Part shown: piece after piece, positions 3,432 to 55,383 of the stretch
How positions within the stretch are numbered: position 1 is the first letter of the stretch
Layout of the letters: each line of letters begins with the position of its first letter
From: Cadophora sp. MPI-SDFR-AT-0126
Taxonomy: Eukaryota; Ascomycota; Leotiomycetes; Helotiales; Ploettnerulaceae
Assembly: GCA_020747065.1 (NCBI GenBank)
Contig: JAGMVK010000001.1
Span: forward strand, 3,844,001 to 3,908,000
Length of the DNA: 64,000 bases
Direction of reading: 5' to 3'
Notes under the pieces: generated by a model
What the model was told of the DNA's origin: nothing
The model's database searches: none
Seen by the model: only the letters and a program-made list of their open reading frames with translations
Program-made: the position numbers and the translations under genes

Positions 3432-6400
3432 TTACTAGCTATACTATTATAAAAACCAGATCTTTCTTTATTCTAAAGCTTTCTTTTTTTAAGTAAATAT
3501 TAAAAAACTCTTTATATATATATATAGAATTATTAATCTTTAGAGATATTTATTAATATTTTACTATAGCTTATATTAAATTAAATAAGTAAAAGTATAT
3601 ATATAAAATAAAAGAATTATAGGTAATTTAGTAGTAAAACAAATACTAATATAAATAGTGCTTATACTTATACTATTCGGAGCTCTTGCTTCTACTTACT
3701 AGAAGGACTACGTTCACTATATTCAAGCTATAATTAAGAAACCTAATTATATCTACGCTTTCGAGAACCGGAAGAGTAAGAAATACTTATATTATACTAA
3801 TTAGAGCGAAATCTGCACTTTTATAAGTACTCCCCTTATTTCCCCTTTTCTTTTTTATTATTTAGGATTTCGGATTCCTAAATATAGTTCGTAATTAACT
3901 TATATATAGCTACTCTAGTACTTAGAAGCTAAGTACTAAGATCTTCTACTTACCTGAACTCTTAAGAAGATTAATAATATCTTTACTATTATTACTACTC
4001 TTAATATAGAGCTTCATGTTATAATCGCTGAATTACTAAAAACTCGTAATAAGTTAAGTTTAGTATTATTAAAGGAGACTTATACTCTCTATATTAGAAT
4101 AGTAAATCTTACTTAAAATTAATTTGTAAGTAATTTTCTTTTCTTTTTATTCTAAATCTTTATTATATATACTCTGATTTATATCCAACTAACTTTTTAT
4201 AGGACTACAGGTAAATCCTCTCTTATATAGAAAAGTAGGTAGAGAAGGCTATAACTATAGTTATTACTTATTATAATAGTAATAAGTATAAGCGTCCTAC
4301 GGAATAAGATAGAGATAAAGATAGAATAATAAGGGAGCTAGCCTGATCCCTTAAGTAAAGAGAACTTAGGGTAAAAAACACTTAAGTAGCGCGAAGGTAA
4401 AGGAAACTAGCGCTAAGCTAGTTAATTTAGGAGCTGCTTATAATTAGGGAAATAGGTCCTATTTTGGAAAGGCTTCGTAACTAGTTCTTTATAGCGGTAC
4501 TTTTTTTATATTAGTATATAGGAATAGTCCCTTATAATAAAACTAGTATTTAGTCCTTATTAGAGTATTATTATAAGGCCGCTTATTAGTATTTTAAATT
4601 AGAGGGTAATTAAATATAAATTAAACTTATTCTCTTTTCTATATTTTAAATAGAAATGAAAATACTTATAAGTAATTAATAAGAGTTATAAGAAAATTAT
4701 AATAAAGGAAAAATCACTTCTTATCTAAAACCTCTCTATTACTCTATTAAATTAGTACTATTAATTCATAAGCTTAGATTATAAGTTAAACTAGCTTCTA
4801 AATTAATATTAAGTAGCCTCTAAACTTAACTCTCTATCTTTATAGTTAAAGTATTAGTATTAATTAGCTCCTAAAGAGCTTTATTTAGCGTTATTTTTAT
4901 TATAATATTAATAGGATTACAAGTACTATTAATTTATTGAATTTCTATTAACTCTCTACGCTTATATAATTAATAAATTACTATTATATTAATTATTAAA
5001 CGTTTCTTCTTTATAGTACTTAGCTTAATAATATACTCGTAGAGAGATAGAGAATCTATATATATTATAGTAAGAAGCTATAATAATCTAAGCTTATCTA
5101 TTACTATATTAATAGTAATTCCTAAGGTAATTAATATATTAATTTCTACTACTATAGTATATAGCTCTAAAGCTAGTATAATACGTATTACTCTCTTATA
5201 CTTTATAGCTTATATAAATAATATTACTAGAGAAGATAAATTTTATATCTTCTTCTATTTCTATTCTAATTACTACTAGAAACCTAATCTATGAACTTAG
5301 ATCCTTATTATTAGTAAATAATCTATTAATAAAGATATAAAGTTTAGTATAGTGTAAATTAACTAGTATATATTATAAACCTTTCTTTATATTATTTATC
5401 TACTATTAAAGGCTTTAGTTTAAAGCTTTAGTATTATTAATTATTAGATCTTAATATTATACTACTACTAATAGATTAAAGTTAGCTTTCGGTTAGTAAA
5501 TTATTATAATATAAGCTCTATAAGCGTGTTACTCTATATAAGTTTTCTTATAATCTAGTACTTTTATATTAACTAATTCTAGCTTTACTTCTTACTTTTT
5601 CTATAATATATAAATATTATCTTTATCTAAAGTAATAGTATATTTATTAAATATAATAGATTTAGAGAAGAGTAGGACTTAAATTAGCTTTATTAGGAAA
5701 TTAGCTTCTATAATCTTATTCTACTCTTTTACTAAGAAGTTATTATTCTTAAGAATAAGAGTATTATTTATTTATATTCTAATAACTCTAAACTCGTAGC
5801 TTTCTTTAGTACTAATTAGTAAGTAAGGGTTATATATTAATATTTATATCTAGAGCTTTTTTATATAATACTTATAGTAGGTATTAAACTAGTGATTTCC
5901 GGATTTTAGTATACTATAGAGAAGGAGTATTATTATAAATATTATACTAAAAGGGAATTTATCTACGATTTCTTCTAATAACTATATAAAGATATTTTAA
6001 AGGAGTTTTATTATTAATTAGATATAAGCTTAAGTAATATCTTAGATTACTAGATATATACTAGATCTCTTTCGGACTTAGTTTAAGTGCCTTATAGTTA
6101 TAGTTAAGAAGATAAGTAATCTTTAGCTTACTTATTAAATAGTAAAAGACTAAGTTAATATCTCTTTCTTATTTTTATTATTAAAGTATTAGATAATAAG
6201 CCTTAATTTCTTATATAGTATTATAGACTTCTTATTCTTTACTTTATCTATTATCTTTAATTTAAAGATATAATAGCTTCTTACTCTAAGATTACCTTTA
6301 GAAATTAGTATAAAAATATCTCTTTTAATAAAAGCTTTATACTTAGTTTATCGGGATTATTAAAATAGTCGATAAAGTATAATAATCTTACTTTTTATAT

Positions 6401-8460
6401 ATAGCTTAATTAATAGCTCTTAATCTCTTATCTCTTTCTTAGTTAGAAATACTTTAGTATTATAATTATTATTAATTATTAGTAGTCCTAGGATTAGCTT
6501 TATAAATAGGACTTTAATAGCGATTTAAGGGGCTTTTAGTATAGTTTTATAAACTTTTCAGATTAATAAGCTAAGCTTATAAGTTATATTTAGTAATTTT
6601 TTTTTCTTTTATTTAATACTAGATATATCTATCTTAAATAAATATACTAATATTAAATAAAATATACGTACTCTACTATTATTTATATTTATTTTATATA
6701 CTTCGCTCTTTATTCCTAAGAAAATATAGAGTCTTTTCTATCTCTTTTTTTTATACTAGATTAATACTTAATCTTAAAGCTTAAGATTATAATATATATT
6801 ATATTAAAGCTATTATAAGTTACTAGTGTATTATTAACTTACTATTTAGTATATATTTAATATACCTTTATTATAACTTTCTTAATAATCTTTATATATT
6901 ATTAAATAGATAGGTTTAAAGGATCTATTTCTGTTATTTTTAGGTAAGTACTAAAAATAAGAAGTATAAGGATTAAGCTATTTAGTCTAGCTATACTATT
7001 AACAGCTTTAATAGCTATCTGTAGGCGATTCTTATTACTTATATTAAGGTACTCTTCTATAATAATTTCGTAAGTATATTAAAGTAAGTGATAATATTAT
7101 TCTACTTTACTAATTAAGTAGTATACCTCTACTAAGATAAGTTTAAGCGTACTCCTTATAGCCTTAAGTATACTTTAAAACTCTGTAGAGTTAAAGTTAA
7201 TTCTATAGTTATAGATAATAAAGTTAAGGGGTCTAATATATATATTTATTTATACTAACTTAAATACGTTAAAAGTAGCTTAAGCTATAGCTGAATTAAA
7301 GCGCTTTTAAAGTAACTTTATAGCTCTAAATCCTATAGCTTTATTTATTATATAAAGTATATATTATTCTTTAAACTATATAATATTAATATAAACTATA
7401 TAATTAAAGTTTATATTATCTTATAGTTTAAATCTAAATTTATATAAAGCGTTTATATATTTTTAGTAATACTTATATATCTCTTTAACTTATAATATAA
7501 TATTAGAATTAGACTTATAGCTAGCTTAGTCTAGTAAATATTATAGATATTATATTAATAAGTAGCTGAATTATCTATAAAGCTAATAAATCTCTATCTT
7601 TATTAAATAATACTAGCTGATTATATTAACTAAAGGTTCGATTAATCAATAATACTAGTTCAGAAGAAGCTATAAGTACTTCTTCTTTCGTATAATTAAG
7701 TATCTCTTATCTTCTTAAACTAATATATTCTATAAGTTATTATAGTATATACTTATCTTATCTAGCTATTATAAATACACTAAGAATAGTATATCTATAT
7801 TTATAATATAGTAATCTAAAACTCTAATTAAGGTATCTACTATAGTAATCCCTAGGGAGGTATAAGAACTAGCTTCGAATTAGATCTGACTTCTACCTAA
7901 TTAACTAGTATTATACTTAATATTCCGAACTTACTATAATATATATAATTAATTAATACCTCCTATATTCTTACTAAATACTTCTATATTAATAAGAAGA
8001 CTTTAAAAGAATTAATCTATTTATTATGTTATATACTTCTTTTTCTAGAGTAGTTTTTAAATTCTACTCTTTAGTATATATAATACCTTCTATTTATTAA
8101 GCCTTTTTATAATATCTATATATTATACTCTACTTTACTTACTATAAATATAATTATAAAGAAAGCTTTTCTATTTTTATTTCTACTATTAAAACTAATT
8201 AATAAATTATTAGAATATAATAAAGTATTAGAATCCTAAGAATCTAGATTATCTTTCTAAATTTTAAGATCTCCTTAATTCTAATTTAAACTTAATTTAG
8301 TTCCTTTAGTATATATTAAGTAGGCCTTAAAAGAATTATTAGTTATCTTTATATCTTCTACTTTATACTTAGTAAAGTACTTTACTTTTAATATTCTTTA
8401 CTTTTTATTAGAATAATAGCTACTATAGTAATCTATCTTCTTATAGATAATATACTCTTT
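3432..8460 (-). mobile_element. RIP-degraded Ty1/copia relic related to the intact element
   Basis: The minus strand lines up with the intact element at 29933-37545 from its gag zinc-knuckle region (about 32070, relic 8455) through pol to beyond the antisense gene. Examples are ESGNH-FNTY for ESGNHWFNTY (about 5900), LLISTKES, and an RNase H tail near 4740-5060 that matches base for base apart from C-to-T and G-to-A changes. Both strands are mutated, as RIP does. Some residues differ beyond RIP, so it is a divergent family member, not a direct copy. The left end is cut by the nested LTR at 3431. The right end stops sharply at about 8460, before the gag start and 5' LTR. Confidence 0.85.
3640..4420 (+). 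pseudogene. RIP-killed copy of the antisense zinc-cluster gene in the copia relic
   Basis: This is the counterpart of the spliced antisense gene at 36082-36866. From 3679 the frame reads GALAST, then a cluster in which the first five cysteine positions of the intact protein read Tyr (TAY for TGY) and the sixth is still Cys. All five spacings agree (2, 11, 9, 2, 6). Flanking residues such as KK-N, F, R-SKK are kept. The exon 1 donor GTAAGT appears as ATAAGT near 3823, again a G-to-A change. Residues between the cysteines differ in ways RIP cannot explain, which points to older divergence under constraint. Confidence 0.6.
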
Positions 8461-24495: not shown

Positions 24496-27400
24496 TCAGT
24501 GCCTTCGTCTTGTCAGCCTGGCCAAGCGTTCTTGTTCAAATAAGTCCGAAAAGGAATATTCAAGGTCCCGGCGCTTGGCTTCTGCAGAAGGACTCCTCTG
24601 ATAGAGTAATGCTCGATCAAGCCCCCATAAGTTCGAGCGAAAACTGGCTGACTGTCTTCCATGTGGGTAGAGAAAGAGCCATAAGGCCAGCGCAATTCCG
24701 TGGGCCTTTTCAGCTTGTTCATAAGCTTGTCGCTCCGAGTATGCTCTGCCCAAGTGGTTGTATATGCTGCACCAATCGTCGACCTCGGACCAAAGAGCAT
24801 GAAGCTTGTCCGAAGCGTCAGTGTTCGAGATCTGGACAGAGGTTTTCATGATCTCCAGAATGGGACGGCGGCTCTCGACGTATTTCTGGGCGACATGCTC
24901 GATAACATCCCTTTTATTTTCCTGCCGAAGGTCATCTATATGTGTGCGCCATGTATATGGGTACCCGCCAGCCAAGGAGCTGCTCAAGTAGGTAGCATCA
25001 TGCATAACCATTTCGTCGAGTGCTTTAACCTGGTCATTTCCACCATCAGCGACCTCTGATTCAGCTACCTCTACTCTGCGTATCAAGAGTTTCGGATAAA
25101 GGATGGTCTTAAGCATATGCCCACGTGGCATACTTCTAACGAATGGCGCAATGCTGTGATCGATGATTCTTCTTGCCTCGGCCTTGCTTTCGACATCGCC
25201 TTTAGCCGCCAGAACGAATACTGCTCCGACCGTGGCAGCGAAAGTCTCCTTGTATCTTTGGAAATTTTGGACTCGGTCTATTGAGTATGCGTCCATGATA
25301 TTTCGAAACAACTGCAGGGACTCGTCTAGCCGACCTTCTTTGCGAAGACATTCGGCCCACCACACTGTCGCGTGAAGTGACGAAAAGTCCCGTGCGCACG
25401 TTTCTGCTTCTAACGTCGCCTCTGCAGGAGGCATCGTTCGACTTCGTACTTTGGACAAAAAGACTTTCTTCTCTGCAATTCGAGGACAATGGTTCATATC
25501 ATCCTGCATGGCTGAAATAGAACGCTCCAGATATTTGATGGCTTTTTCTGTCTTTCCAGAAGAAGCTAACATTCGACCGACTTGGTACAACAGTTCTGCG
25601 AAATCAAGACTTGGCAATTGGCGCGCCCTCATATACTCTGTCATCGCGTTCGAGAAAGCATGGCCTTTTACCACAAGAGCATGGCGCTGGGGCATCAATT
25701 CATCCATGACCAGTTTTCTGACCTCGGCACCAAGTACGATATCTTCCCAGCCATCCTGGGGGCCATTATCCGCGATCGCAATTCTGCTCAACAAATGCTT
25801 GGCGAGCCAAGTAACGTATTTGTGCCGCTCCTCAATCGGTAGACGACGAGATATCCAGCTATGGACAACTGGATGTACCCAGCACTCCCTTGACGTGACC
25901 AGGGAATAGTTGCAAAGTGGTCCAATAGAAAGTTGCAAGTGGTGACTGGGCTTCGTTTTCAGATGGTTGCTATAGACTTCCGAGAGTAAGGTAGCTGGAC
26001 ATTCTTGCAGAGGGAAAAGGTTTTCGAGATTGTCGATCGGGGTGGGGCCGTCCTGATCCCTGAAGACGTATTCGCCTTCGGAGAGACCCCTCAATGTTGA
26101 GGATTGAGAATCCAAAAATCCTAGCAAGTCGAGTATCATTGCTGGCTGGGACTTCGACTCCGGATACAATGGGCCTGCGATCTTTCTGTAGGACATCTCC
26201 CAAGTAAGTAATACTGTCTTCTGCTCTTTGTCCACTGAGGTAGCCTTTCTCTTGAAAAGTTCATCATGATTGTCGAGATCCTTGTATAGAGCAATGAACA
26301 CCTCCATAGGACACTGTTCCTCTCTCATATATGATGCAGCTTGTACGATGGCCAATGGAAGACCTCCCAACATGTCTAGAAAGTTTCGACACTTGGCTTT
26401 GGGCGATTGAGAAGCAAGCGCTGGTGGTATGCACTTTTCCAAAAGGAGAAGCCCATCTTCCACTGTCATTTCTCCCACACGGATACCATTCTGAGGAGGC
26501 ACAATGCCCTCGCCGACAAGTTTTGACTGCCTTGTTGTAATCAAAACCTGGCCATGGGCAGCAAATGGGATATAGTTCATCAGCCTGAATGAATCAGAAT
26601 CCGGTCGTATGGGATCTCCCAAGAGGAACTTCAAGTCTTCGGCATCGTCGAGAACAAAGAGCCAGGGCCTTGTATACTGGGTCTCCAGATGCGCCTTGAC
26701 TACCTCGAACGTCTGAATCTTGTTGGATGCCACCGCATTGAACTGCGGTATAATCATCTGAGCAACAGCGAGGTAGCCCTGTTCGGCGTTTTCGAAATCG
26801 CTGGCTTTGATCCAGAAAACAGAACGCTCCTCGCAACATCGCCGCGCGAACTCATATGCTATTTGACTCTTTCTAGAAACAAGGGTTGGTGGGTTAGCCC
26901 GTGCCAAGTGGTTATATATCGTCGCCAAGGGTATAGCCAATCTCACCCAATCCCTCCTAGGCCATGCAAGCAAACGCTTTGATGGGTCCCTGGCGACGAT
27001 TCCATAAGTGTTCGTATGTTCGAAAGTTCCGTCTCCCTTCCTGAGAATATGCGATTGGAATTTGAGGTAGACGAATGCCTTGGCAGAGTGGAGATGAATT
27101 TGGAAATCTGGATATCTTGAGCTGTTGGTTCGTGGTGTTAGCTGGCACTTTGTACGAAACGAAGATGATTCAGGGATGCCCAAGAGGTTATTCTACCTAC
27201 GTGCTAACTCCTCAGTACAAAGGCTGCGACTACACTTCTCCAACTCGCTTTCCTTGCGTCCCAGATATTCCTGTGTGAAGGCGTCGATATCATCCATTTT
27301 GTGCCAATGGTCCAACGCCACGGAATCCATGCCCCAGTCAACATCAAAGCGATGGTATACTCCGGCTTCACTTAGTTCTTTGCCTTTCCTGTCACCAACA

Positions 27401-29927: not shown

Positions 29928-29932
29928 AGTAA

Positions 29933-30147
29933 TGTTGGTCCACAGGCCCATACAGGACATGTCTCAGCTAGAATAGGGGGTAGGACCACTTGCGGAGGCG
30001 ATTCGGTGGCGTTTCGGAGGCAGTATATAGTCTGGCATCTCCTGCCCCCTCTTAGAAACACACAGATTTTCCACACCATCAAGCTTGATATGCATATACA
30101 TGATATTTACGTTTGATTCTTGGCTTATATTCGGTATTGAACCGACA
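29933..30147 (+). repeat. 5' LTR of the copia element
   Basis: 215 bp, TG...CA ends, same sequence as the 3' LTR. It contains a possible TATA element (GTATATAG, about 30023-30030), consistent with promoter function. Confidence 0.97.
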
Positions 30148-30444
30148 CTGATCAGTGGTCAACACGTACCACAGAGCAGATAGGTCACGGCAAGAAAAGC
30201 GGCGACTTCAACGTTGAGTACTTAGCTGTACTTAACGGGCAACTCTTTGAAACTGAATCAACGAGTGGCGATTCAGAAGTAAGGGACAGGCATCACGTTT
30301 GGACTGCAAATCTTGTACACCTGTACACACAACAACAGCGGCGATTCCTCTTCGACAATCGTTAAGTCAATTGCTTGACTCTAGCTAAAGAGCTTTCAAG
30401 CAAACAACACCATATCCGGAAGACCACCGATTCAGATACGAACC
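30148..30444 (+). promoter_or_regulatory. Copia leader (untranslated region, possible PBS)
   Basis: About 300 bp between the LTR and the polyprotein start. A short palindrome (ACTGATCAGT) lies at its left edge. No conventional tRNA-complementary primer site abuts the LTR, so priming may use an internal tRNA site, as known for some copia elements. Confidence 0.45.
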
Positions 30445-33400
30445 ATGGCTGAAGAAACACCAGCTGTTTCGGACCGGGAGGAAAGAGTAGAGGGGGAAGA
30501 GGAAGCGGCGGAGGCAGTGTGGACAGGGCCAAAGCCAGTGGAGGAACCACCAGAGGATCCAACGAAGCTTTCGCAGGAGTTTCGGAAGCTCTTCTGCGAT
30601 GGCAGTAAGAAGGGCGAGTTCCTTTTCCAAGACTACTGGGAGTACTTCGGAAATTGGTCTCCATTCCATTTTTCCCGGATGAGGAAATCAGAGCGGATCA
30701 TGCTACGGGACGCATTACGAGCCAACGGTGTTTACGTACAACGGGACAGAGCACCAGCATCCATTGCGTTAGCTCAGACAGCACGAGCCAAAGACAATAT
30801 TTGGCCAGAGGATCAGTTAAGGTTACAGATTCAGAACGCTCCCGAGACGGTACCGGACCAGATTCGGAGCACTCGCCAAGCGACGACCTCAACTACCCAA
30901 ACACTTTACCAGAGAGTGCCTCCACCACATCAACGCAACAAACCAACGGTGGTGATCGATTCTGTTGAGTCGACTCCTCCAGAGGAGGAAGAGGGGACGC
31001 GCCAACGTGTTCAGTTGAGAAGTAATTTCCCAAGGGCCGAGGTGTCTCAGAGCTCAGACAATTTTGCTACCCCTGCCCAGGCAAAACTCACCATTCCAGA
31101 CGACGATTTGTATGGCGCAACACCACCAGTTCATACAAAGAGGGAGTTCACATTTACCCCTGGGAGAGGACCCCTAAATACAGCACCAATATGGAGACCG
31201 AACGAGAATCTGTTGCCAAATCCAGTGCCAGCCCCGGATGTGTACCCGCGGGATGGGTCTTTGCCCCCATTTGCGGGACCTAGACCTAACGGACCATATA
31301 CGGAGCAGATACGACCATCCTGGTATGTCCAGGATACATTGACGCAGGGCCAATCGAAGTCCTTGGTAAGCCTCAGCAAGATGTACACAAAAGAGCTTCA
31401 GTATAGTGGGTCCAAAGACCACTTGGATGAGAAACTACACATCTTTGCCGACTTCTGCCAGAAAGCCGGCGTTAACTATGACATTTGGCACCGGGCATTT
31501 CCGACGATGCTCCGGGACGGAGCAAGTTCGTACTATTATCGGTACCTACAGAACAAGGGGTACAAATTTGATGATCTTATCAAAGCAACACGTACTAACT
31601 TCGAGACGGAGGAGAGAGCCAACCAATTCCTCAGCCGCTGGTTTAGCCTAACTTTCTCGTCATTTCAAGCCGAGCCTTACCAGAAAGGCAGGCCAATTTT
31701 GGCTCAGTTGGAGAGCTTCGCCAGAGAACTGCAAAGCATCCAACTTGGCCTCAAAGACGACAATATGCGAAACGACAAGACGTTGCGCGATAAGCTAGTA
31801 CAGGGAGTATCTGGAAACCCGCTCTTCAAGATGGCGTTGTTTCGAGCACCACCTACATTCCCTACATTAATGGACAGCCTTCGCACGGCTTTGAGCGTGG
31901 AAACGACCCATGAGTCGGGATCACGAGTAGGAAAATACACCGGGTCAGGGCCGAATCACTATCGTTCCTACGTGGCGGACGGAAGAGCCCTCTATTCAGA
32001 TCGGAGGATGAAGTTTTCGGCAGGTAATAAACGTGGAACTAAATTCCAGCCTAAACCAGGTTACACGGGGTGTATCATCTGCAAGAAGATGGATTGCCAC
32101 AGTAGCTGTCATTCTGACGAGGAGCAGAGAGCGTCAAAGGCAAAGTACTTTGCTGAGCGCAAAGCAGAAGGTATGAAGGCAACCAACGATTCTTTCAAGG
32201 CCTACTTAGCGTATACTGAGGGAACCGGATTGGATTCGGATCAGAACCGGGGAGGTCCCGAAATTCAGGAAGATAATCCAGATTCCCAGGATTCCGACAC
32301 TTCATTGTATTCTGATGATTTATTAACTGGTTCCGATGGCGGGAACAAAGACGGAAAGGCTTTCTTCACGACCGTGTTTACAGCAAGTGAGGCAGAGTAT
32401 GATGTACGAGACGTAATGAAAAGGCTTGACGAACGGAAGGCGTCACATGTACTGGAGAGTAGAATTCAAAAGCCGCCCCAGGAAGAGAGGTACACGACGC
32501 AATGGACAGATCGATTCTTCCAAGGTCTTCTTATCGATACAGGAGCGTCTGGCAAGAACGTGGGAGGTATCAATCAATTGCGTGCGTTGCAGCGAGTTCG
32601 GAATGTCAAGTACGATACCAGTCAATCGGGCAGGAGTCGGATCCAATTCGGAGCCGGTTCTTGTACCTCCCTAGGGGTTGCCACGGTGGATACCCCAGTT
32701 GGGGTTTTGGACTTCCATATTGTGGATACGGACGTGCCATTCTTAGTGTGTTTGCAACAGCTGGACAAGATGGGTGCGTACTACGATAACCTGCAGAATG
32801 TGTTGGTTCAGGGAGACAAGAGGTACTTGATTGTGCGAAAGAAGGAGCACCCATGGCTTCTTTTGGACCAGCATCATCAACTGATCGAACCTTCGGTCAA
32901 TATAATCAGCCAGTGCCATTTGACAGAGGCAGAGATTCGTCGGCTTCATAGACGATTCGGCCACCCATCAGTACAACGTCTGCAGCATTTGCTAGACCAA
33001 GCTGGCCATGAGTCTGATTCCAACATCATGTTGCGGGTCAAAGAGATGTGTGAGCACTGCCAGAAACATGCAGACGCTCCACACAGATTCAGATTCAAAC
33101 TGCAAGACGATGTAGACTTTAACCACACAGTTTACGTCGATATTGCACAGTTTGGAGAACGATATGCACTTCATATGGTGGACGAGGCCACAGGATTTGG
33201 AGCTGCAAAGCTGCTCCGAAAGCGCCCCGGTTCAGCTACGGCTCGGGCCACTTTCAACGCATTTAAGTCAGCATGGATGGACACATACATTGGACCCCCT
33301 GACTTCGTTGTCTACGACTATGGAACCAACTTCAACTCTGCGGAGTTTCGGAGTGCACTCAGGGCCGTGGGGAGCACGCCTAAACTTGTCCCGGTAGAGG

Positions 33401-35790
33401 CGCACCACTCAATTGGCAAGGTAGAACGATATCATCGTCCACTCCGACGTGCCTACGAAATCGTCACGGAAGAGCACCCTGATATGAGCGATGAGGATCG
33501 CCTACAGATGGCTGTTAAAGCTGTCAACGATACAGCTGGACCAAATGGCTTGATCCCTACGCTTCTTGTTTTCGGTGCCTACCCAAAAATGACGGAAATG
33601 GATCCTCCAAACCCATCCATTCAACAACGTGCGGAGACCATCAAGAGGGCCATGATAGAGGTGCGCCAAATACATGCGAAACGGCAAGTCAACGATGCGC
33701 TGGCAACCCGTAACGGCCCTGGTACAACGCATATTCATGATCTCAAGCTTCAAGATCAAGTATTGGTCTGGCGTGAAAAGAAGGGATGGAAGGGACCCTA
33801 CACTTTCTTGGGAATGGAGGACGAAGCATGCAAAATAAATATGGATAACGGCAGAACACGCACATTTCGTTCAACATCAGTACGTCCATTCAAGACAGAT
33901 ACATCTGGCGTCGAACAAAAGAAAGAAAAATTGCCAGATGTGACCCGTGAGCCCAGCTCACCAGTCCGAAAAGCCCCCGAAACTGCACCGAAAGCCCCCC
34001 GAATCGCTATCGAAGTCCCATTTACAAAGCCAATCCCAGGACTACCAACAATTGATGATGATTACGATGCTGAAGTGTTTCTAACTGAGAAGGAGACAAG
34101 AGATCGAGAGCTGTCGATCAAGCTACGCGCAGAGGGCAAGATCACCACACCTGGCCCACCATTTCAGCAATCCCGACGAACCGAGTACGAAGCTCTCATC
34201 AAGAGAGGTGTTTTTATGCCGATTTCCAAAGGCGACCCCAGAGTAAGAAGCCACCGCATCTTCAAATCAAGGATGGTGGATGAAGTGAAGGGCAAGGAGT
34301 CTGCAACACCATACGAGAAATCAAGGCTCGTCATCCAATGCTTCAACGACAAAGGCAAGAAGGAGATATTAACCCAGTCTCCCACCATCCAACGGGTAAG
34401 CCAGAGATTGCTCATCTCCCTAGCCGCAACTATGAGGCACCCGAACCAGGTCCGAAAGGGGTCCGGTATGCGTCTGGCAATCCGAGATATTACCCAGGCC
34501 TACGTCCAGTCAACGACAAAACTCCTTCGGAATATCTTTGCATGGCCGCCGGAAGAGATCGCAGATGAATTCCCCCCTGGCACGATATTCATGGTAATGC
34601 TCCCTCTCTATGGCATACCAGAATCCGGAAATCACTGGTTCAACACCTACCATAAGCACCATATGGAAAGGCTCCAGATGGAAACGTCAACGTACGACCC
34701 TTGCTTGCTAATTAGTACTAAAGAAAGCCACGAGTTTGGAGTCGTTGGAATGCAAACAGACGACACTCTTATCCTCGGGGATGATGACTTCTTGGCAAGA
34801 GAGCAGGACGGGATTACGGAAGCCAATTTCCTGACGAAGCCGATTCAGGTCCTACTCCCCTCCGAATCCATTACGTTCAACGGATGTACTATTACTTTGG
34901 ACGAAGACGACATTTACATATCGCAGAAAGGGCAAGGAGCAAGGCTAGAATTAGTTGATGTGAAAGCACCAGATTACAAGAAGGCCTACGTGGAGCAACG
35001 CGCTCGCGGAGCTTATATTGCAACGATTTGCCAACCGGAAGCCAACTTTGATTTGTCGGTGGCAGCGCAACATCAGGATCCAACGATCGACGACGCTAAA
35101 GCTTTGAACCAACGCCTTCAATGGCAGATGGATAACGCGGAGAGAGGTTTACGGTACATACCAGTTGATCTACACCATGCCAAACTTTATGTCTTCGTCG
35201 ATGGATCATTTGCCAACAACAAGGATCTAAGTTCACAGATCGGGTTTCTGGTGGTAATCGGAACAGAAACGGAGGGGGACACGGAATTTATCCTCTCCGG
35301 CAATATCATTCATGCAAGCTCCACAAAGTGCAAGAGAGTAACGCGTGCTGTACTCGCTTCGGAGCTGTATGCTATGGTAGCAGGAATCGATATGTTGATT
35401 GCCTTGGGAACCACTGTCAACATGGTGACGGATAAGCTTGGATTACCACGGCTTCCTACCGTGGTGTGTACAGATTCCCTATCTCTCTACGAGTGTATTG
35501 TCAAGCTTGGCACCACGAAGGAGAAACGTTTAATGATTGATATAATGGCAATTCGTCAATCATATGAGCGTAGGGAGTTGACGGAGATTCGATGGATCGA
35601 TGGCACTCGCAATCCTGCTGATGCTATGACAAAAACAACGCCGAATAGAGCTCTTCAAGAGCTAATTGACACCAACACCTTAACTGTGAAGATGGAGGGT
35701 TGGGTTCAGAGGCCACTTGATGTCGACTTGGAAGCTAATTTGACTCATGATCTGGGCTCACGAATCGACGGTGCTAATTCGGTGGAGTAA
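30445..35790 (+). CDS. Copia Gag-Pol polyprotein
   Basis: A single frame of 1,781 residues. Gag occupies roughly 1-560, with a variant zinc knuckle (C543-x2-C546-x4-C551, then H552, C555, H556). Protease: DTGA at 698-701. Integrase: H835-x4-H840 and C869-x2-C872, then D899, D958 and E994, the D,D-35-E spacing. Reverse transcriptase: the catalytic pair is D1439-D1440 within MQTDDT. RNase H: D1586, E1640, D1677, D1726. Every catalytic residue is present and no stop or shift occurs, so the protein should be functional. Gag and Pol share one frame, so no ribosomal frameshift is needed. After it, 1.5 kb of element remains, which holds the antisense gene. The start is the first ATG of the long frame, 297 bp past the LTR. 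Confidence 0.96.
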   Translation: MAEETPAVSDREERVEGEEEAAEAVWTGPKPVEEPPEDPTKLSQEFRKLFCDGSKKGEFLFQDYWEYFGNWSPFHFSRMRKSERIMLRDALRANGVYVQRDRAPASIALAQTARAKDNIWPEDQLRLQIQNAPETVPDQIRSTRQATTSTTQTLYQRVPPPHQRNKPTVVIDSVESTPPEEEEGTRQRVQLRSNFPRAEVSQSSDNFATPAQAKLTIPDDDLYGATPPVHTKREFTFTPGRGPLNTAPIWRPNENLLPNPVPAPDVYPRDGSLPPFAGPRPNGPYTEQIRPSWYVQDTLTQGQSKSLVSLSKMYTKELQYSGSKDHLDEKLHIFADFCQKAGVNYDIWHRAFPTMLRDGASSYYYRYLQNKGYKFDDLIKATRTNFETEERANQFLSRWFSLTFSSFQAEPYQKGRPILAQLESFARELQSIQLGLKDDNMRNDKTLRDKLVQGVSGNPLFKMALFRAPPTFPTLMDSLRTALSVETTHESGSRVGKYTGSGPNHYRSYVADGRALYSDRRMKFSAGNKRGTKFQPKPGYTGCIICKKMDCHSSCHSDEEQRASKAKYFAERKAEGMKATNDSFKAYLAYTEGTGLDSDQNRGGPEIQEDNPDSQDSDTSLYSDDLLTGSDGGNKDGKAFFTTVFTASEAEYDVRDVMKRLDERKASHVLESRIQKPPQEERYTTQWTDRFFQGLLIDTGASGKNVGGINQLRALQRVRNVKYDTSQSGRSRIQFGAGSCTSLGVATVDTPVGVLDFHIVDTDVPFLVCLQQLDKMGAYYDNLQNVLVQGDKRYLIVRKKEHPWLLLDQHHQLIEPSVNIISQCHLTEAEIRRLHRRFGHPSVQRLQHLLDQAGHESDSNIMLRVKEMCEHCQKHADAPHRFRFKLQDDVDFNHTVYVDIAQFGERYALHMVDEATGFGAAKLLRKRPGSATARATFNAFKSAWMDTYIGPPDFVVYDYGTNFNSAEFRSALRAVGSTPKLVPVEAHHSIGKVERYHRPLRRAYEIVTEEHPDMSDEDRLQMAVKAVNDTAGPNGLIPTLLVFGAYPKMTEMDPPNPSIQQRAETIKRAMIEVRQIHAKRQVNDALATRNGPGTTHIHDLKLQDQVLVWREKKGWKGPYTFLGMEDEACKINMDNGRTRTFRSTSVRPFKTDTSGVEQKKEKLPDVTREPSSPVRKAPETAPKAPRIAIEVPFTKPIPGLPTIDDDYDAEVFLTEKETRDRELSIKLRAEGKITTPGPPFQQSRRTEYEALIKRGVFMPISKGDPRVRSHRIFKSRMVDEVKGKESATPYEKSRLVIQCFNDKGKKEILTQSPTIQRVSQRLLISLAATMRHPNQVRKGSGMRLAIRDITQAYVQSTTKLLRNIFAWPPEEIADEFPPGTIFMVMLPLYGIPESGNHWFNTYHKHHMERLQMETSTYDPCLLISTKESHEFGVVGMQTDDTLILGDDDFLAREQDGITEANFLTKPIQVLLPSESITFNGCTITLDEDDIYISQKGQGARLELVDVKAPDYKKAYVEQRARGAYIATICQPEANFDLSVAAQHQDPTIDDAKALNQRLQWQMDNAERGLRYIPVDLHHAKLYVFVDGSFANNKDLSSQIGFLVVIGTETEGDTEFILSGNIIHASSTKCKRVTRAVLASELYAMVAGIDMLIALGTTVNMVTDKLGLPRLPTVVCTDSLSLYECIVKLGTTKEKRLMIDIMAIRQSYERRELTEIRWIDGTRNPADAMTKTTPNRALQELIDTNTLTVKMEGWVQRPLDVDLEANLTHDLGSRIDGANSVE

Positions 35791-36081
35791 CGGAGAGGTT
35801 TCGGGCGAGGGGTGATTTTTCCTTTGTTATGGTTTCCTTACAACTCTCATTGATCACTTGCAATTATTTTCAGTTGTGTTTGAGATGCAGAAGGGAGAAC
35901 GAGTTTGATTTGCAAGTAATTACCCTCTGATTCAAAGCACCAACGGGCGGCCTTGCGACGACACTCCAACAGGGACCAAGTGCCGGTTTCACCACAGGGG
36001 GTTACTCCCGTACACCGGTATGAAGAAAGTGCCGCCACGAAGAACCAACCACGAAGCCTTTCCGAAACAGGGCCTATTCCC

Positions 36082-36866
36082 CTACTCGTAAGCAGCACCC
36101 AGATCAACTGGCGTATTGCCAGATTCCTCCTCCCCCGCGCCACCTGGGCGACTTCCACCCCGATTTTTCTTTGCCCGAGGGCCCGAACCTTCTCCATCTC
36201 CATCTCCATCATCCCCCGCAGGGGTCTTACGCTTGACACCACCACGACGAGACACAACGGAAGCCACAGCCTCCTCAACCCGCTTCTCCATGCGGGAGAG
36301 GATCTGCCCGCAGTCCTATAGAAGCTTTAGCCGGACATGAACCGGAGTACATTCGGTGAAGATTCAGAGCAAAAGAAAAGGGGATTACCTACGAATTGAC
36401 TTTGGGCGAGATCCGCCATCCCAGCACGGAGAGCACGAGTCTCCTCCAACAACGCCAAACTCATCTCATCCCGAGTCTTTGGCAGCTCGGCAGCCGCAAC
36501 CCGGAGTTCTGCATCGATAGCTGCAGCGGCAGCAGAGACGGCAGCAGCATCCTCACCAGCGAGGGCATGGGTGAGTTCTTGGTACTCGGCATCCAAGAAC
36601 CAGGGGATCTACAAACGGGTCAGTTACGGATCACATTCGGGGCAGTTCAGAATTTGGGATTAGAAAAAGGGAGGGGGGGTACCTACGGGATTGCATGGGG
36701 ATTTCTTTTCGGCACAGTACGAGCATTTCTTGCTCTCTCGCTTGTTGAAGGAGCAGACGTGGTTCGATTTCTTCGCCAGGAGTCGGACGCAACGGATGCA
36801 GTGGTTTCGGTGGGCAGCAGCGAGAGCTCCGAATGGTGTTGGTGCAGGCACTGTTTGTGTTAGCAT
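36082..36866 (-). CDS. Antisense spliced gene in the copia element: Zn2Cys6-like cysteine-cluster protein
   Basis: On the strand opposite gag-pol, three exons (36866-36687, 36608-36393, 36315-36082) join in phase 0 across introns of 78 and 77 bp with GTAGGT donors and TAG acceptors, giving 209 residues. Exon 1 has HCIRCVRLLAKKSNHVC followed by KKCSYC and a last Cys, pattern C-x2-C-x11-C-x9-C-x2-C-x6-C. This resembles the fungal Zn2Cys6 cluster (C-x2-C-x6-C ... C-x2-C-x6-8-C) with a longer first loop. Exon 2 is Ala-rich and helical. Exon 3 has basic GVKRK and RAKKNR around an acidic/Gly stretch, like a nuclear localisation signal. More 5' exons are possible (a frame enters from the 3' LTR at 37358-36990). 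The relic copy keeps the cysteine spacing. Function is unknown; a DNA- or RNA-binding regulator is a guess. Confidence 0.75.
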
Positions 36867-37330
36867 CCGTTTCACCACTGAACCACCTACGATTCTTTTG
36901 AATTTCTATACTTACTTTTGCTTATTTGATTTGGTACGGACTACAGCAAAATATTAGCGAATATCTTTCGAGATCGAAGGTTTATACACTTACAAGTGGT
37001 TCTTTGATATTTGCTTAAGGAGGGAGAGCTTCAGAATAGAGAGAGATCTCGGTTTTGTACAGCCAGCGATGGCCTCGCTTAGCATTTGTTTACTTGCTAT
37101 TGTCTTCTGACGGGCCGCATCAACTACTTCCGACGTACAGCTTTCAGGCCACAACCGGAGGTCTTTCGGACTATGGTACTTCCGTGGCTCCGTACTTGGT
37201 ACACCTATTCTACCTCCTTTGCCTACATGGTCACTCTTTGCAACTGTTTTTCTCTTACAATTGGAATGGAGATTCGCTTCTATAACGGAGATTCGCTTGG
37301 AAACTGTCTTTCCAAAAGAAGATTTGCCGG

Positions 37331-37545
37331 TGTTGGTCCACAGGCCCATACAGGACATGTCTCAGCTAGAATAGGGGGTAGGACCACTTGCGGAGGCGAT
37401 TCGGTGGCGTTTCGGAGGCAGTATATAGTCTGGCATCTCCTGCCCCCTCTTAGAAACACACAGATTTTCCACACCATCAAGCTTGATATGCATATACATG
37501 ATATTTACGTTTGATTCTTGGCTTATATTCGGTATTGAACCGACA
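37331..37545 (+). repeat. 3' LTR of the copia element
   Basis: 215 bp, identical by eye to the 5' LTR, followed by the AGTAA target duplication. On its opposite strand it could also supply a promoter for the antisense gene. Confidence 0.97.
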
Positions 37546-37550
37546 AGTAA

Positions 37551-51757: not shown

Positions 51758-52042
51758 TCAGATTCCTATGATTTGGGCTTTCCGAACCAGAGTCGGTGCG
51801 TGTTCTGTGTTGGAACATTTCTCTTTACGTGAATCATGCCCGTCGGACTGTGATACTGTTGGCGGTTCATGGTTTACAGCACCTCGCTGAGCCCCATTTC
51901 CCGGAGGACCTGCTGGTGGTTCCCTGGCAAGCGCTGGCGCATCTGCGACCTCCACGGCTGGTGCAACCGGCATTTGGGGAGCTGCCACAGCTGGTCTGCT
52001 GATTACTGCTGGATTATTCGGTCTGCTCGCGATACCCGTCAT
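51758..52042 (-). CDS. Pro/Ala-rich frame overlapping the retropepsin stop (ATGA)
   Basis: A 94-residue frame whose ATG overlaps the preceding stop by one base. It begins MTGIASRPNNPAVISRP, is rich in Pro, Ala and Gln, and has no fold I recognise. It may be the C-terminal tail of the retropepsin protein moved out of frame by a one-base change, or it may be translated by termination-reinitiation. Which one cannot be told from sequence alone. Confidence 0.35.
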   Translation of the reverse strand: MTGIASRPNNPAVISRPAVAAPQMPVAPAVEVADAPALAREPPAGPPGNGAQRGAVNHEPPTVSQSDGHDSRKEKCSNTEHAPTLVRKAQIIGI

Positions 52043-53022
52043 TTCCTCGTCCTGATAATCATTCGTAAACTCAAGCTTGCGTGCAAAAAAGCCTTGTGCT
52101 GAAGTGTCAGCAGATCACCGTATGTAACAATTGAATCCTGATCGGAAATACCTTTACTACCCTTGCTAGAACCAAAAGTTGGACAGAGGAACAGATTCTC
52201 TTCGTCCACATGCGTCCATTCTATGTCGGAGATTCTCTCGTCAAATACTTGGTGTTTCTTGACGAAGGGATTTCCAAGTGACAGGTCGAAGGGATGCCCG
52301 TCGATGATTGTGAATCGACTTCGCATTGACTTGCACTGTCCGGCGATCCCTCGAAACTTGAATTGCGTTTCAATATGTCCATGACATTGGACCCTGGCTC
52401 CGTTGGCTAGTTTGACTGTGACTCGGCTGTGTTGTGCTCCTTCGACCGAGTATCCCAACGCCTGGGCATATGCCAGTGACATGAAATTTTGGTTCGAGGC
52501 TTTGTCAGGCACCGCCTGAGCTTCCTTCAATCCAATCTGAATACGTATTTGGGATTGAAACTGGTGATCTCGCATTGTGCAATGGTGCTTGACTGGATGG
52601 ATTGCCATATTCTTCTGGCGAAGCGGAGCTAAGGCCTCGTGCCCAGTATGTCGAGGACATCTCAATAAACCGGATTCGTAGAGAAACGGACGACCGAGGA
52701 TTATGGGTTGAATACCGTAGGGAAGAATGTAAAATTCGCAGCTCGGAAAGTGCACTCCTCTGGCAATGCAATTTACTAACGCGCGACCAGTTGCATACGC
52801 AAGTGAACCATCTCCTAATGTGAAAGGTACATTGACTGGTTCCACGGCAATGTGATTCTTCAATGCGAATTCTAGGCTCAGAATACTGCAACTGGCCTGG
52901 TTGTCTATGCAAGCAATGTGCTCGATTCCTTCAATAGAAATGCGGCAGAGGTCCAGACTATCCACCCAAAATGGCAAGCTGCTTATGAGTGGCTCCAGAC
53001 TTCTCGGAGCGTTGCGAAGCAT
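52039..53022 (-). CDS. Tandem retropepsin-like (aspartic protease fold) protein
   Basis: A 327-residue frame with two successive protease-like folds. The first has IACIDNQASCSILS (DTGAS-type loop), FTLGDGSLAY and PIILGRPFL. The second has DKASNQNFMS, VTVKLANGARVQCHGHIETQ and FDLSLGNPFV. ILGRPFL-like and LGNPF-like ends are the usual flap-side and psi-loop blocks of retropepsins. The catalytic D-T/S-G is changed in both (DNQ and DKA), although each Asp remains, so activity is doubtful. It may derive from a retroelement protease turned into a host gene. The stop TGA overlaps a downstream ATG as ATGA (52042-52039). Upstream exons are possible. Confidence 0.6.
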   Translation of the reverse strand: MLRNAPRSLEPLISSLPFWVDSLDLCRISIEGIEHIACIDNQASCSILSLEFALKNHIAVEPVNVPFTLGDGSLAYATGRALVNCIARGVHFPSCEFYILPYGIQPIILGRPFLYESGLLRCPRHTGHEALAPLRQKNMAIHPVKHHCTMRDHQFQSQIRIQIGLKEAQAVPDKASNQNFMSLAYAQALGYSVEGAQHSRVTVKLANGARVQCHGHIETQFKFRGIAGQCKSMRSRFTIIDGHPFDLSLGNPFVKKHQVFDERISDIEWTHVDEENLFLCPTFGSSKGSKGISDQDSIVTYGDLLTLQHKAFLHASLSLRMIIRTRK

Positions 53023-53504
53023 CTAGATCTGATCAGCTGGAACCATCATCTAGTCTTATTGATTCGTCTCAACATACTGAGTGCCGAATGCCGCTGGAGC
53101 TGTCATTGTTAAAGTTGTTTGGAGCAGAGATCATGCTGAAGACTGTGGCAGCGAGGGGGCTGAGCATTCAGATGGAAAAGGCAGCTAGCTGGTTTTATGT
53201 AAAATATTCGAGAGTGGAGGTCCCTTGAGTGTGGCTTCCTGCTCGCGAAATGGTAGGTCAAGGTCAGGCAGATGACATTCAGCTCGGTGTACTCGATAAG
53301 TCTGCGTGCATATGGCGTGACACAACCTGCTGCATAGACTGCAGCTTTGCCCGGGACACCCCACCAATTGCTCCTTGGATATAAAACAGGAGCACCCATA
53401 ATTATTTTGTTGAAATGTACGCTCATTGTGAGCGCCATTTATGCCAAAAACTATCTTCCCGCAGAGTTGTTGATAAGCGCAGACGACGAAAGATAATCTC
53501 TACA
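53023..53504. other. Divergent intergenic region
   Basis: 482 bp between the retropepsin start and the DUF6594-like gene. It presumably holds both promoters. An in-frame ATG at 53415 lies 30 codons upstream of the chosen start. Confidence 0.4.
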
Positions 53505-55383
53505 ATGGACGAAGAACGGGCTGAGGTAGTTGTCAGTTCAGCTTCACCGACTCTAAGGGCTCCCAAAACGCCAAAAGAAATCTTGGATGATGTGCCGGAC
53601 GGGATACCAAAGACCGGAGCATTCCTCTCACTCGATCCCGATATGTCCACCTTGATCGTCAGACGATTCCACCAACTTTCCACGCGTAACTTACTTTTTC
53701 TCGAGGGTCGCGTGGCAGCTCTTCAGAAGTTGCAACGAAATCTTGATCAAACACAGAAAGAGGAAAGAGATGTCATCGACGCTGACAAGTCATGGGAAGA
53801 GTTTGCTCTTCTGGGAACTGGACGCGGCGCTCGGGGCGGAATGCGTATTCCCGCAATCGCTTTTGCGGAATGGGCCATTTCCCGGGAAAAGCGCAAATCA
53901 GGTACTTTGCCTGGTAAGGAGTCCGAGCCTTTCCAGCAAGCAAAATCGTTGAGATTTGTCAGAATCTTGCTGCAGAGTATCGAGGAGCTCGGAGTTCAGG
54001 ATCAAGAAATGGTATTGGGTGTTGCCCGAGGCGAGCTCCAAACTCTACGAGACAAATTACCAGACAAATTATTCCTGGACCAACCCCAGTCTGAGCCTTC
54101 TCTTCAAGCAAATCTGTTGGAGGTTACAATAAACTGGCTGGGAAAGATAAAGCCCTACCCGTTTCTGGAGAAGCGCGGGATTTCTGGGAAGAGTGACGTT
54201 TTGATACAAGCGAAATTATCAGATATTCTCAAAAGCTTGCTGCAAACTATACAAGACAGCTTGGTTGTGAACGGGTCCGAAATTTCTCAGCAAGCAACGT
54301 TATTGGGTGTTGTCAGGAACGTGCTGCAGACTATACAAGACAACTTTTCTCTCAAGTGGCCTGAGATTATTGGGCTGCACGAAAGGTTGTTGAAGATTGC
54401 CACAGACTCGCTATTAACCATACACCCCAGCGAACGTACGGGGGATCCCGACTTTTCACATCATGCAGAGCTGTTAGCTATTGCTAAAGGTTTGCTGGAA
54501 CGTATACAAATCAGCTTTCGTCACCTGGATTGGCCCGAATCTTCTCTGCAAGGCCCCGTGGGAGTTGTCAAAAGGTTGCTACAGAACATACAAGACGACT
54601 TGCGTCTTAAAGAGACTGAGCTTTCTCAACAAGCAAAGTCGTTAGATCTTGCTGAAACGTCGCTTCGGACTATACAAGACAAATGGGATGTTGCAATCGC
54701 GGTGAAGGATGCCCTCAAGGAATATCGTAAGGGTCGAGAGACAAACCCCCAACAGAGATGGCTACTGACACTTGATAGAAGAAGCGGTTCTTCGCTACCG
54801 TGACATATCGAGCCTCGAGCCTCCTGCTACCCGCTCACTAGAGACAATCCGGAAGTGGTTCAACAGGGAGCAGCCGCATGACTTGCTGAATGTCGATCGA
54901 GCGGGTGGTCCATTTCTGCGTGAATCAGCACTGAACTCTCTGTTTAAAGTAGACCATAAGGAAACAATTGCTCTCCATGTTGGAGCCGACGACGATCCTG
55001 TCTCAAAGAGACTTAGTCAGTGGGAGTGGTACACGAATCTGGCAGGGGTATGTGACTACCCTATTCGGAGAATCGTGCCGAAACTGACAAGTTGACAGCA
55101 AGACATGGTCCAAGGATTCCGGTGGACTCCCGAGAAATGGATTCACGATTCAGTGACTGGGATCAATTTGACCATTGCCATTGTCTTCCTGGTGGGAGCA
55201 ACTTGGTCTTTGTGGGGCTCAGAGCATAGTGATCATGTTACTGTCACCTTAGCGGTACTGACAACATGGGTCATTATCTTCGCGGCATGGATAGGGTTGC
55301 TAACCAATGCGAATCGAGGGGAAGTGTTCGCCGCCACAGCGGCTTATGCAGCAGTGTTGGTGGTATTTGTTGGGACAGGGTGA
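53505..55383 (+). CDS. DUF6594-like membrane protein with an expanded helical repeat
   Basis: Three exons (53505-54726, 54779-55047, 55099-55383) give 591 residues. N-terminus: MDEERAEVVV, then FLSLDPDMSTLIVRRFHQLS and LEGRVAALQKLQRNLDQ, like the first helices of DUF6594. C-terminus: EYQEAVLRYRDISSLEPPAT and ETIRKWFN, then three membrane segments (LTIAIVFLVGATWSLW, TLAVLTTWVIIFAAWIGLL, FAATAAYAAVLVVFVG), the typical DUF6594 end. Between them sit about 260 residues of a 28-residue repeat (about 8-9 copies; consensus like LLxVxxxLLQTIQD) absent from usual family members. The start at 53505 is chosen because the preceding 30 codons look like leader. No stops. The relative at 18772-19751 has the normal short layout and is dead. 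Confidence 0.8.
53930..54710 (+). repeat. Degenerate 84 bp tandem repeat inside the DUF6594-like gene
   Basis: The block ACTATACAAGAC or a close variant recurs at 54246, 54330, about 54417, about 54500, 54585 and 54669, that is every 83-87 bases (28-29 codons). Weaker copies extend left to about 53930. Each unit encodes an amphipathic helix such as LLQTIQD, so the array should form a helical rod. Confidence 0.8.

What the first reader, a model, noticed from the sequence alone, without database searches (positions are those of the whole stretch)
36082..36866. A spliced antisense zinc-cluster gene carried inside a young copia retrotransposon
Seen: between pol and the 3' LTR, on the opposite strand, three exons with GTAGGT donors and TAG acceptors join in phase 0 at both junctions into a 209-residue protein. 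It has C-x2-C-x11-C-x9-C-x2-C-x6-C, close to the fungal Zn2Cys6 cluster, then a helical middle and a basic nuclear-signal-like tail. Known: additional antisense ORFs occur in some plant LTR elements; I know of no described fungal copia protein of this kind. Inferred: the element may encode its own DNA- or RNA-binding regulator, for example to control its LTR, counter silencing or guide integration. Introns on the antisense strand survive retrotransposition because the genomic RNA is transcribed from the other strand.
Basis: partly seen in the sequence, partly recalled or inferred. Interest (0 to 1): 0.88.

Follow-up and report, generated by a model that had tools for sequence, protein, structure and literature searches.

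The report
Antisense gene shared by unrelated retrotransposons
A jumping gene in a fungus carries, on its opposite strand, a spliced gene for a zinc-cluster-like protein; an unrelated kind of jumping gene in the same genome carries a related gene in the same place, which suggests a regulator cassette swapped between genomic parasites.

Summary
The window has a young Ty1/copia element (29933-37545; identical 215-bp LTRs, 5-bp target duplication) with a spliced antisense gene between pol and the 3' LTR; junctions are as given. The gene is selected: frame, introns and six-cysteine spacing are intact in 16 of 40 copia loci examined; 22 of the other 24 are RIP-type relics of the window's subfamily. 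Unexpectedly, a Ty3/gypsy element (L041; 7 of 7 copies intact) carries a homologous antisense gene in the same place, although gag-pol and LTRs show no match. Copia-gypsy comparison shows purifying selection (omega 0.16, 0.33, 0.68 for exons 1-3). The start codon is probably split by a further intron. The antisense 3' flank forms a hairpin whose pairs are kept better than chance on the antisense strand. The cysteine block weakly resembles Gal4/Leu3 zinc clusters, but spacing is non-canonical and Pfam finds none. Best reading: an antisense regulator cassette exchanged between retrotransposon superfamilies. Antisense extra genes are known (plant Grande/Retand; Botrytis brtn), so this is a new variant. 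Function is inferred.

The parts
29933..37545 (+). Ty1/copia LTR retrotransposon (7613 bp), flanked by AGTAA target-site duplication (29928-29932 / 37546-37550)
   Evidence: identical 215-bp LTRs, TG..CA ends, TSD; copia-type RT match RVT_2
29933..30147 (+). 5' LTR, 215 bp
   Evidence: 100% identical to the 3' LTR
30445..35790 (+). gag-pol ORF, 1781 aa
   Evidence: open frame; searched in pieces: gag, gag_pre-integrs, rve and RVT_2 matches, all below Pfam's cut-offs
35889..36964 (-). cassette shared with the gypsy element L041 (window 35889-36250 and 36370-36964 align at 70% and 66% DNA identity)
   Evidence: blastn
36917..36964 (-). conserved 5' flank of the antisense gene, presumed 5' UTR or promoter-proximal
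   Evidence: alignment of copia A, B, D and gypsy C
36916..36916 (-). first base (A) of the proposed split start codon, at the end of the upstream exon
   Evidence: A before GTAAGT/GTATGT in lineages A, B, C, D
36851..36915 (-). proposed intron 0 (65 nt; GTAAGT ... CTAAC ... CAG) splitting the start codon
   Evidence: the gypsy version has TAA, and D no ATG, at the old start
36609..36686 (-). intron 1, 78 nt, GTAGGT...TAG
36393..36608 (-). exon 2: helical region, start of long helix (PKTxxELSLALLEETRALRR)
36316..36392 (-). intron 2, 77 nt, GTAGGT...TAG
36082..36315 (-). exon 3: end of helix, basic tail (RRGGVKRK, PRAKK), stop TAG
35935..36081 (-). conserved hairpin in the antisense 3' flank
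   Evidence: pairs kept with compensatory changes between copia and gypsy on the antisense strand; covariance-model matches in 16 of 17 sources searched, 3 of which built the model
37331..37545 (+). 3' LTR, 215 bp

Best explanation
The feature is an accessory gene cassette of LTR retrotransposons: a gene on the strand opposite to gag-pol, presumably transcribed from its own promoter upstream of 36917, spliced two or three times, with a conserved RNA hairpin in its 3' untranslated region. Because the packaged RNA is the sense strand, the antisense introns pass unchanged through retrotransposition. The protein has an N-terminal six-cysteine block that probably folds like a Zn2Cys6 cluster, a long helix that probably dimerises it, and a basic tail; it most likely acts in the nucleus as a nucleic-acid-binding regulator of the element (transcription, RNA fate or silencing). 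The cassette has been exchanged between a Ty1/copia lineage and a Ty3/gypsy lineage and is kept by selection in both. SHOWN: gene structure, conservation, purifying selection between the copia and gypsy versions, sharing between superfamilies, a covarying hairpin (two independent sequences). INFERRED: own promoter, splicing of intron 0, zinc binding, dimerisation, nuclear role, regulatory function.
For: Intact frames and introns in 16 of 40 copia loci and 7 of 7 gypsy copies. The 23 near-identical pol copies picked from the top (A 3, B 13, C 7) each have the cassette beside them, 23 of 23 (each scored only 40 candidates). Copia A versus gypsy C: codon-position differences 64/66/107 (p = 6e-4), omega 0.37 overall, exon lengths differ only by multiples of 3 while introns differ freely, amino-acid identity 93 of 195 (47.7%) against a random maximum of 43.6%. 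Copia and gypsy pol pieces do not find each other (Pfam) while the cassette aligns at 66-70% DNA identity. Cysteine spacing exact in 7 of the 10 full sequences that cover the block (RIP relics of this genome not counted); the other 3 have Cys>Tyr changes. Hairpin: 7 two-sided compensations against 1.05-1.27 expected (0-1 of 5000) on the antisense strand. AF2 model of relative P0004: mean pLDDT 76-98 per ten residues over 11-140, a helix at each CxxC; for exon 1 alone, both rows reported among four chains compared are Zn2Cys6 DNA-binding domains, GAL4 and Leu3.
Confidence: 0.6

Rival explanations
1. The protein serves the particle or integration (a nuclear-import, tethering or nucleocapsid-like helper) rather than regulating expression.
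For: Basic tail, long helix and cysteine block would also fit an RNA/DNA chaperone or tether; both carriers are LTR retrotransposons with the same life cycle; the 23 recent copies checked all keep it.
Against: The gag-pol frames are open in both carriers without it, with the full set of enzyme domains found for gypsy and weaker matches for copia. Antisense, intron-bearing expression is odd for a structural protein needed in step with Gag (inference).
Confidence: 0.15
2. The antisense RNA itself is the active part (dsRNA or antisense control of copy number, with the hairpin), and the protein is secondary.
For: Conserved hairpin on the antisense strand; introns 1 and 2 resemble each other; antisense RNA control is discussed for other elements (PMC7264820, passages).
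Against: Amino-acid-level purifying selection, exon indels in threes and conserved cysteine spacing show that the protein matters.
Confidence: 0.1
3. The cassette is a hitch-hiker on LTR elements: it is maintained by recombination between copies and gives no benefit to its carrier.
For: Found in unrelated carriers; mosaic A/B similarity and lower synonymous divergence in the cassette than in gag-pol (pS 0.24 against 0.33-0.56); A/B mosaic L004.
Against: It has no visible mobility of its own; none of the 23 recent copies checked lacks it.
Confidence: 0.1
4. Chance open frame, gene-prediction artefact or shadow of a sense-strand ORF.
For: A long sense-strand frame exists in B (263 aa).
Against: That length is not kept in A and C (longest sense frames 167 and 157 aa); conserved junctions, Cys pattern and codon-position bias fit the antisense frame; independent gene models in Cadophora and Leptodophora.
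Confidence: 0.02

Closest known systems
brtn, antisense gene of Boty-like Ty3/gypsy elements of Botrytis cinerea (Zhao et al. 2011, Virology 417:248; seen only as a citation and second-hand passages)
   Same: Antisense extra gene in a fungal LTR element of the same order (Helotiales, recalled for Botrytis); a review lists it among antisense genes between pol and the 3' LTR, also in Sclerotinia (PMC7264820, passage).
   Different: Known here only from a gypsy family; I could not read the paper or obtain the sequence, so homology to this family is untested. The profile search returned no protein named from Botrytis or Sclerotinia, which is not a direct test.
Plant antisense aORFs: Grande gene23, RIRE2, Retand TRP28 (PMC7264820, PMC11963269; passages)
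   Same: Antisense gene between pol and 3' LTR; Grande protein nuclear and transcribed from a promoter upstream of the gene; TRP28 predicted to bind DNA.
   Different: Plant gypsy elements; the word intron does not occur in either main text, and the passages seen describe no sharing with copia and no zinc cluster.
HTLV-1 HBZ (named in PMC11963269 passages; splicing and bZIP nature recalled)
   Same: Antisense gene of a retroelement for a nuclear protein; spliced (recalled).
   Different: Unrelated protein (bZIP, recalled); HTLV antisense promoter lies in the 3' LTR (PMC7264820 passage); vertebrate retrovirus.
Extra ORFs of bdelloid rotifer retroelements (PMC5408684; passages)
   Same: Homologous extra ORFs shared between very different retroelement types.
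   Different: Different protein families (DEDDy, GDSL and others); antisense spliced genes are not described in the passages seen.
Fungal Zn2Cys6 (Gal4-type) transcription factors
   Same: Six cysteines in two CxxC halves, each with a short helix; later helix; basic residues; weak fold match to GAL4 and Leu3.
   Different: First inner loop is x11 instead of x6; no Pfam match; smaller than typical members (recalled).

Membership tests
Ty1/copia LTR retrotransposon (carrier in the window) | Two LTRs and target-site duplication | tested here: met
Ty1/copia LTR retrotransposon (carrier in the window) | Integrase before a copia-type RT | tested here: met
   gag_pre-integrs and rve in 32401-33900, RVT_2 in 34051-34920 at E 7e-7 (29.5 bits against a cut-off of 31.6) and in subfamily B at 3.6e-7; all just or well below Pfam's cut-offs
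Ty3/gypsy LTR retrotransposon (carrier L041) | Protease, RT, RNase H, then integrase; LTRs; TSD | tested here: met
   Pfam Asp_protease_2, RVT_1, RT_RNaseH, Integrase_H2C2, rve above cut-offs, in that order; 222-bp LTRs identical and TSD CCTAG
Antisense additional ORF (aORF-3R) of LTR retrotransposons | Coding frame between pol and 3' LTR, antisense to gag-pol, in most recent copies and conserved | tested here: met
Antisense additional ORF (aORF-3R) of LTR retrotransposons | Antisense transcription | not testable with these tools
   no RNA data held
Fungal Zn2Cys6 binuclear cluster (PF00172, accession recalled) | C-x2-C-x6-C-x5-12-C-x2-C-x6-8-C spacing (pattern recalled) | tested here: not met
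   x11 in place of x6; canonical pattern absent from A; second half fits
Fungal Zn2Cys6 binuclear cluster (PF00172, accession recalled) | Match to the Pfam profile | tested here: not met
   no Zn_clus match in 6 members (E up to 5) or 5 exon-1 fragments (E up to 10); HMMER filters drop most matches above about 0.1
Fungal Zn2Cys6 binuclear cluster (PF00172, accession recalled) | Fold: two CxxC-helix halves | tested here: inconclusive
brtn family | Sequence homology to BRTN | not tested
   sequence not available; paper not held

The most novel reading that the evidence does not exclude
A self-contained regulatory cassette (antisense promoter, spliced zinc-cluster gene with a splice-assembled start codon, and its own RNA hairpin) moves between unrelated superfamilies of LTR retrotransposons. 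The protein may recognise the cassette's own conserved RNA or DNA, which would explain why it works with unrelated LTRs; its binding part then diverges between co-resident subfamilies (copia A versus B) while the helix stays fixed.
Probability: 0.3. Interest if true: 0.9.

Novelty: new variant of a known kind. Interest (0 to 1): 0.76.

Why it matters
Extra genes of LTR retrotransposons are mostly of unknown function. Here one gene, with introns and an RNA hairpin, sits in the same antisense place in copia and gypsy elements of one genome and shows selection between them. That gives a natural comparison: whatever it does must work with two unrelated LTRs, gags and integrases. It offers a tractable fungal parallel to retroviral antisense regulators and shows that accessory genes can cross between retrotransposon superfamilies.

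Tried and rejected
Sense-strand ORF as the real gene: rejected, because the long sense frame of B is not kept in A and C. Known RNA family: none at gathering scores, two chance-level matches in the E-value mode. Hairpin in the sense RNA: fewer pairs kept than chance. Pfam DUF7388, RanBP zinc ribbon, FXR_C1: below cut-offs, chance-level. Foldseek hits to TRPM3 and similar for the P0004 model are long-helix matches. PDB sequence search with the copia RT half: nothing. L043 first looked like a free-standing gene; its flank is a copia LTR at 73%. RIP relics as evidence of independent conservation: rejected after transversion counts showed most of them to be copies of lineages A, B and C. A tree of cassette proteins (8 rows) has only one well-supported fork (A+B, 99/96), so direction of transfer is unresolved; one origin of the copia versions is not ruled out. 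Introns 1 and 2 resemble each other (shuffles kept mononucleotide content only); not followed up. NCBIfam: nothing. A passage of PMC4522978 was looked at and is irrelevant.

Full report
What was checked. The window carries a 7613-bp element, 29933-37545, with two identical 215-bp LTRs, TG..CA ends and an AGTAA target-site duplication. The single gag-pol frame runs 30445-35790. Searched in pieces, it gives gag, gag_pre-integrase and rve matches and, downstream of the integrase, a copia-type RVT_2 match (E 7e-7), all below Pfam's cut-offs: a Ty1/copia element. The antisense gene between pol and 3' LTR is as described: exons 36866-36687, 36608-36393, 36315-36082, GTAGGT donors, TAG acceptors, phase 0, 209 aa.

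Copies in the same genome. The host genome is held (54 Mb, 38 contigs); the nearest named protein relatives are from Leptodophora and Cadophora, so it is probably a Helotiales fungus (Leptodophora lineage). A DNA search with 35800-37330 listed 40 places (40 of 89 candidates scored, so a lower bound). All 40 were fetched and aligned. Three are identical to the window (one, L003, is the window itself). Thirteen (L014-L026) form subfamily B, about 84-85% identical with roughly 135 transitions and 100 transversions, frames and introns intact. The other 24 have at least one stop; 22 of them differ by 0 to 5 transversions and otherwise almost only by C>T/G>A, the mark of RIP. The exceptions are L004, an A/B mosaic, and L033, which resembles B. 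All 16 intact copies keep both GTAGGT/TAG introns. Intron 1 differs in length between A and B by 8 nt, exons only by 12 nt.

The unexpected part. Protein searches of the genome found further matches. One group, seven near-identical places (L041, L053-L058), lies in a different element: gag, then protease, RT, RNase H, integrase (Pfam above cut-offs), identical 222-bp LTRs and a CCTAG duplication: Ty3/gypsy. Its antisense gene is in the same place and orientation and intact in 7 of 7 copies. Of the 12 larger loci typed (L041-L052), three are copia (L042, L051, L052; L051 also has gypsy pieces in its flanks), one (L043) has no pol match and is taken as a truncated copia because of an LTR 73% like the window's, and eight are gypsy. 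Copia and gypsy pol pieces do not find each other at E 1e-4, nor do the LTRs, whereas the cassette aligns at 70% and 66% DNA identity over window 35889-36250 and 36370-36964. Common descent of the carriers cannot explain this; the cassette must have moved between lineages.

Selection. Copia A against gypsy C: codon-position differences 64/66/107 (chi-square p 6e-4); omega 0.16, 0.33 and 0.68 for exons 1-3, 0.37 overall. Protein identity is 93 of 195 (47.7%); 5000 random sets of 237 substitutions gave a mean of 35% and a maximum of 43.6%, an open frame in 0.34% and all six cysteines in 0.1%. Against this: A versus B is less constrained (overall omega 0.58). Codons 12-55 (zinc part) have pN 0.257 and pS 0.297, codons 56-95 0.221 and 0.267, but codons 96-127 (helix) 0.013 and 0.186 (Fisher p about 0.02 for zinc part versus helix on rounded counts, uncorrected; zinc part A-B versus A-C p 0.06). 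Gag-pol A-B omega is 0.07-0.11. The binding part may be changing specificity between two co-resident subfamilies, or be relaxed; the data do not decide. B-C exon 3 shows omega about 1.

Start codon. In gypsy C the position of ATG 36866 is followed by a stop, and in lineage D (L043, a relic) there is no ATG. In A, B, C and D a donor (GTAAGT or GTATGT) preceded by A lies 63-71 nt upstream of CAG|TG (TAG|TG in D). Splicing would join A|TG into ATG-CCT: MPAPTP. Of five outside gene models reaching the N-terminus, P0004 and P0010 begin MPSPVP and MPLPVP; P0001, P0002 and P0003 begin elsewhere. This is an inference; in A and B the old ATG could add five residues if the intron is retained.

RNA hairpin. 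The 3' flank of the gene is the best conserved non-coding part where it aligns (p-distance 0.23 over 163 sites A-C). On the antisense strand the fold of A, tested on C, keeps 41 of 46 pairs (null 34.8 +/- 2.0; 16 of 5000 as good) with 7 two-sided compensations (null 1.05; 0 of 5000); C tested on A: 41 of 48 (36 of 5000) and 7 (1 of 5000). On the sense strand 20 of 31 and 19 of 33 pairs are kept, no more than chance (21.0 and 21.0 expected), although C tested on A gave 4 two-sided changes (31 of 5000). A column-shuffle control of the consensus fold gives z -2.8 antisense and -0.4 sense. The transversion-only test gives 3 against 0.58 (about 1%), and a relic lineage (L063) is uninformative. Gypsy C folds far better than shuffles (z -3.95), A does not (z 0.0). 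A and B are almost identical here, so effectively two sequences carry this evidence. Rfam has no match above its gathering scores.

Spread. Profile searches found relatives in Cadophora sp. DSE1049, Leptodophora sp., and unnamed or metagenomic sources (20 rows at E <= 1; candidates were capped at 7995). Thirteen of the 20 rows (P0005, P0006, P0008, P0011-P0020) do not match the cysteine pattern even with Cys>Tyr/Arg allowed; most are fragments. Whether those genes sit in copia or gypsy elements could not be tested. The 23 near-identical recent copies (A 3, B 13, C 7) picked all have the cassette within 600 bp of pol (23 of 23); older relics were not checked systematically.

Literature. Searches (open-access full text only; some searches listed 20 of 26, 30 of 104 and 15 of 25) showed no description of this gene or of an antisense gene shared by copia and gypsy in the listings I saw. 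Precedents, from passages only: PMC7264820, PMC11963269, PMC5408684, PMC8365987, PMC4227169, PMC5987419. Zhao et al. 2011 on brtn was not held; I know it from citations.

Mechanism. Most likely an antisense-expressed nuclear regulator; because it serves unrelated LTRs, its target may lie in the cassette itself. The exchange probably came from template switching or gene conversion (inference); mosaic A/B similarity and synonymous divergence of 0.56 in the protease-integrase part, 0.43 and 0.33 in the RT parts and 0.24 in the cassette suggest that the 3' part recombines. I put about 0.93 on a real selected gene, 0.97 on sharing between superfamilies, and 0.6 on the regulator reading.

Noticed in passing
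window 3452-8455 (-): A RIP-degraded copia relic with traces of gag-pol and the cassette region (blastn/tblastn; hairpin model match 4448-4594) inside a region of 19-35% GC.
   Followed up: partly
window 36609-36686 and 36316-36392: Introns 1 and 2 of the antisense gene resemble each other (GTAGGTA..CCCC..TTTTCTTT and GAATGTNNTCCG motifs) beyond 500 shuffled controls; possibly introner-like.
   Followed up: partly
L044-L050, L059, L061, L062: Transversion counts separate RIP relics from true lineages: 8 of these 10 gypsy relics have zero transversions to gypsy C in the exons; L059 has 1 and L061 has 12.
   Followed up: yes
L004 (C38:1309350-1310872): A/B mosaic: exons 1-2 like copia A, exon 3 like copia B.
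   Followed up: no
L063 (C17:75400-79000): Copia relic whose cassette is closest to Leptodophora P0001, with an inserted stretch near the start of the antisense gene and a gypsy-C-type LTR (91%) nearby.
   Followed up: partly
window 34753-34764: RT motif region reads QTDD instead of the usual YxDD-type copia motif (motif recalled; frame).
   Followed up: no
window 24499-27192 (-): 898-aa frame with NB-ARC and TPR matches.
   Followed up: no
window 52042-53022 (-) and 53385-54800 (+): Aspartyl-protease-like frame (two protease-type matches) and a DUF6594 frame.
   Followed up: no
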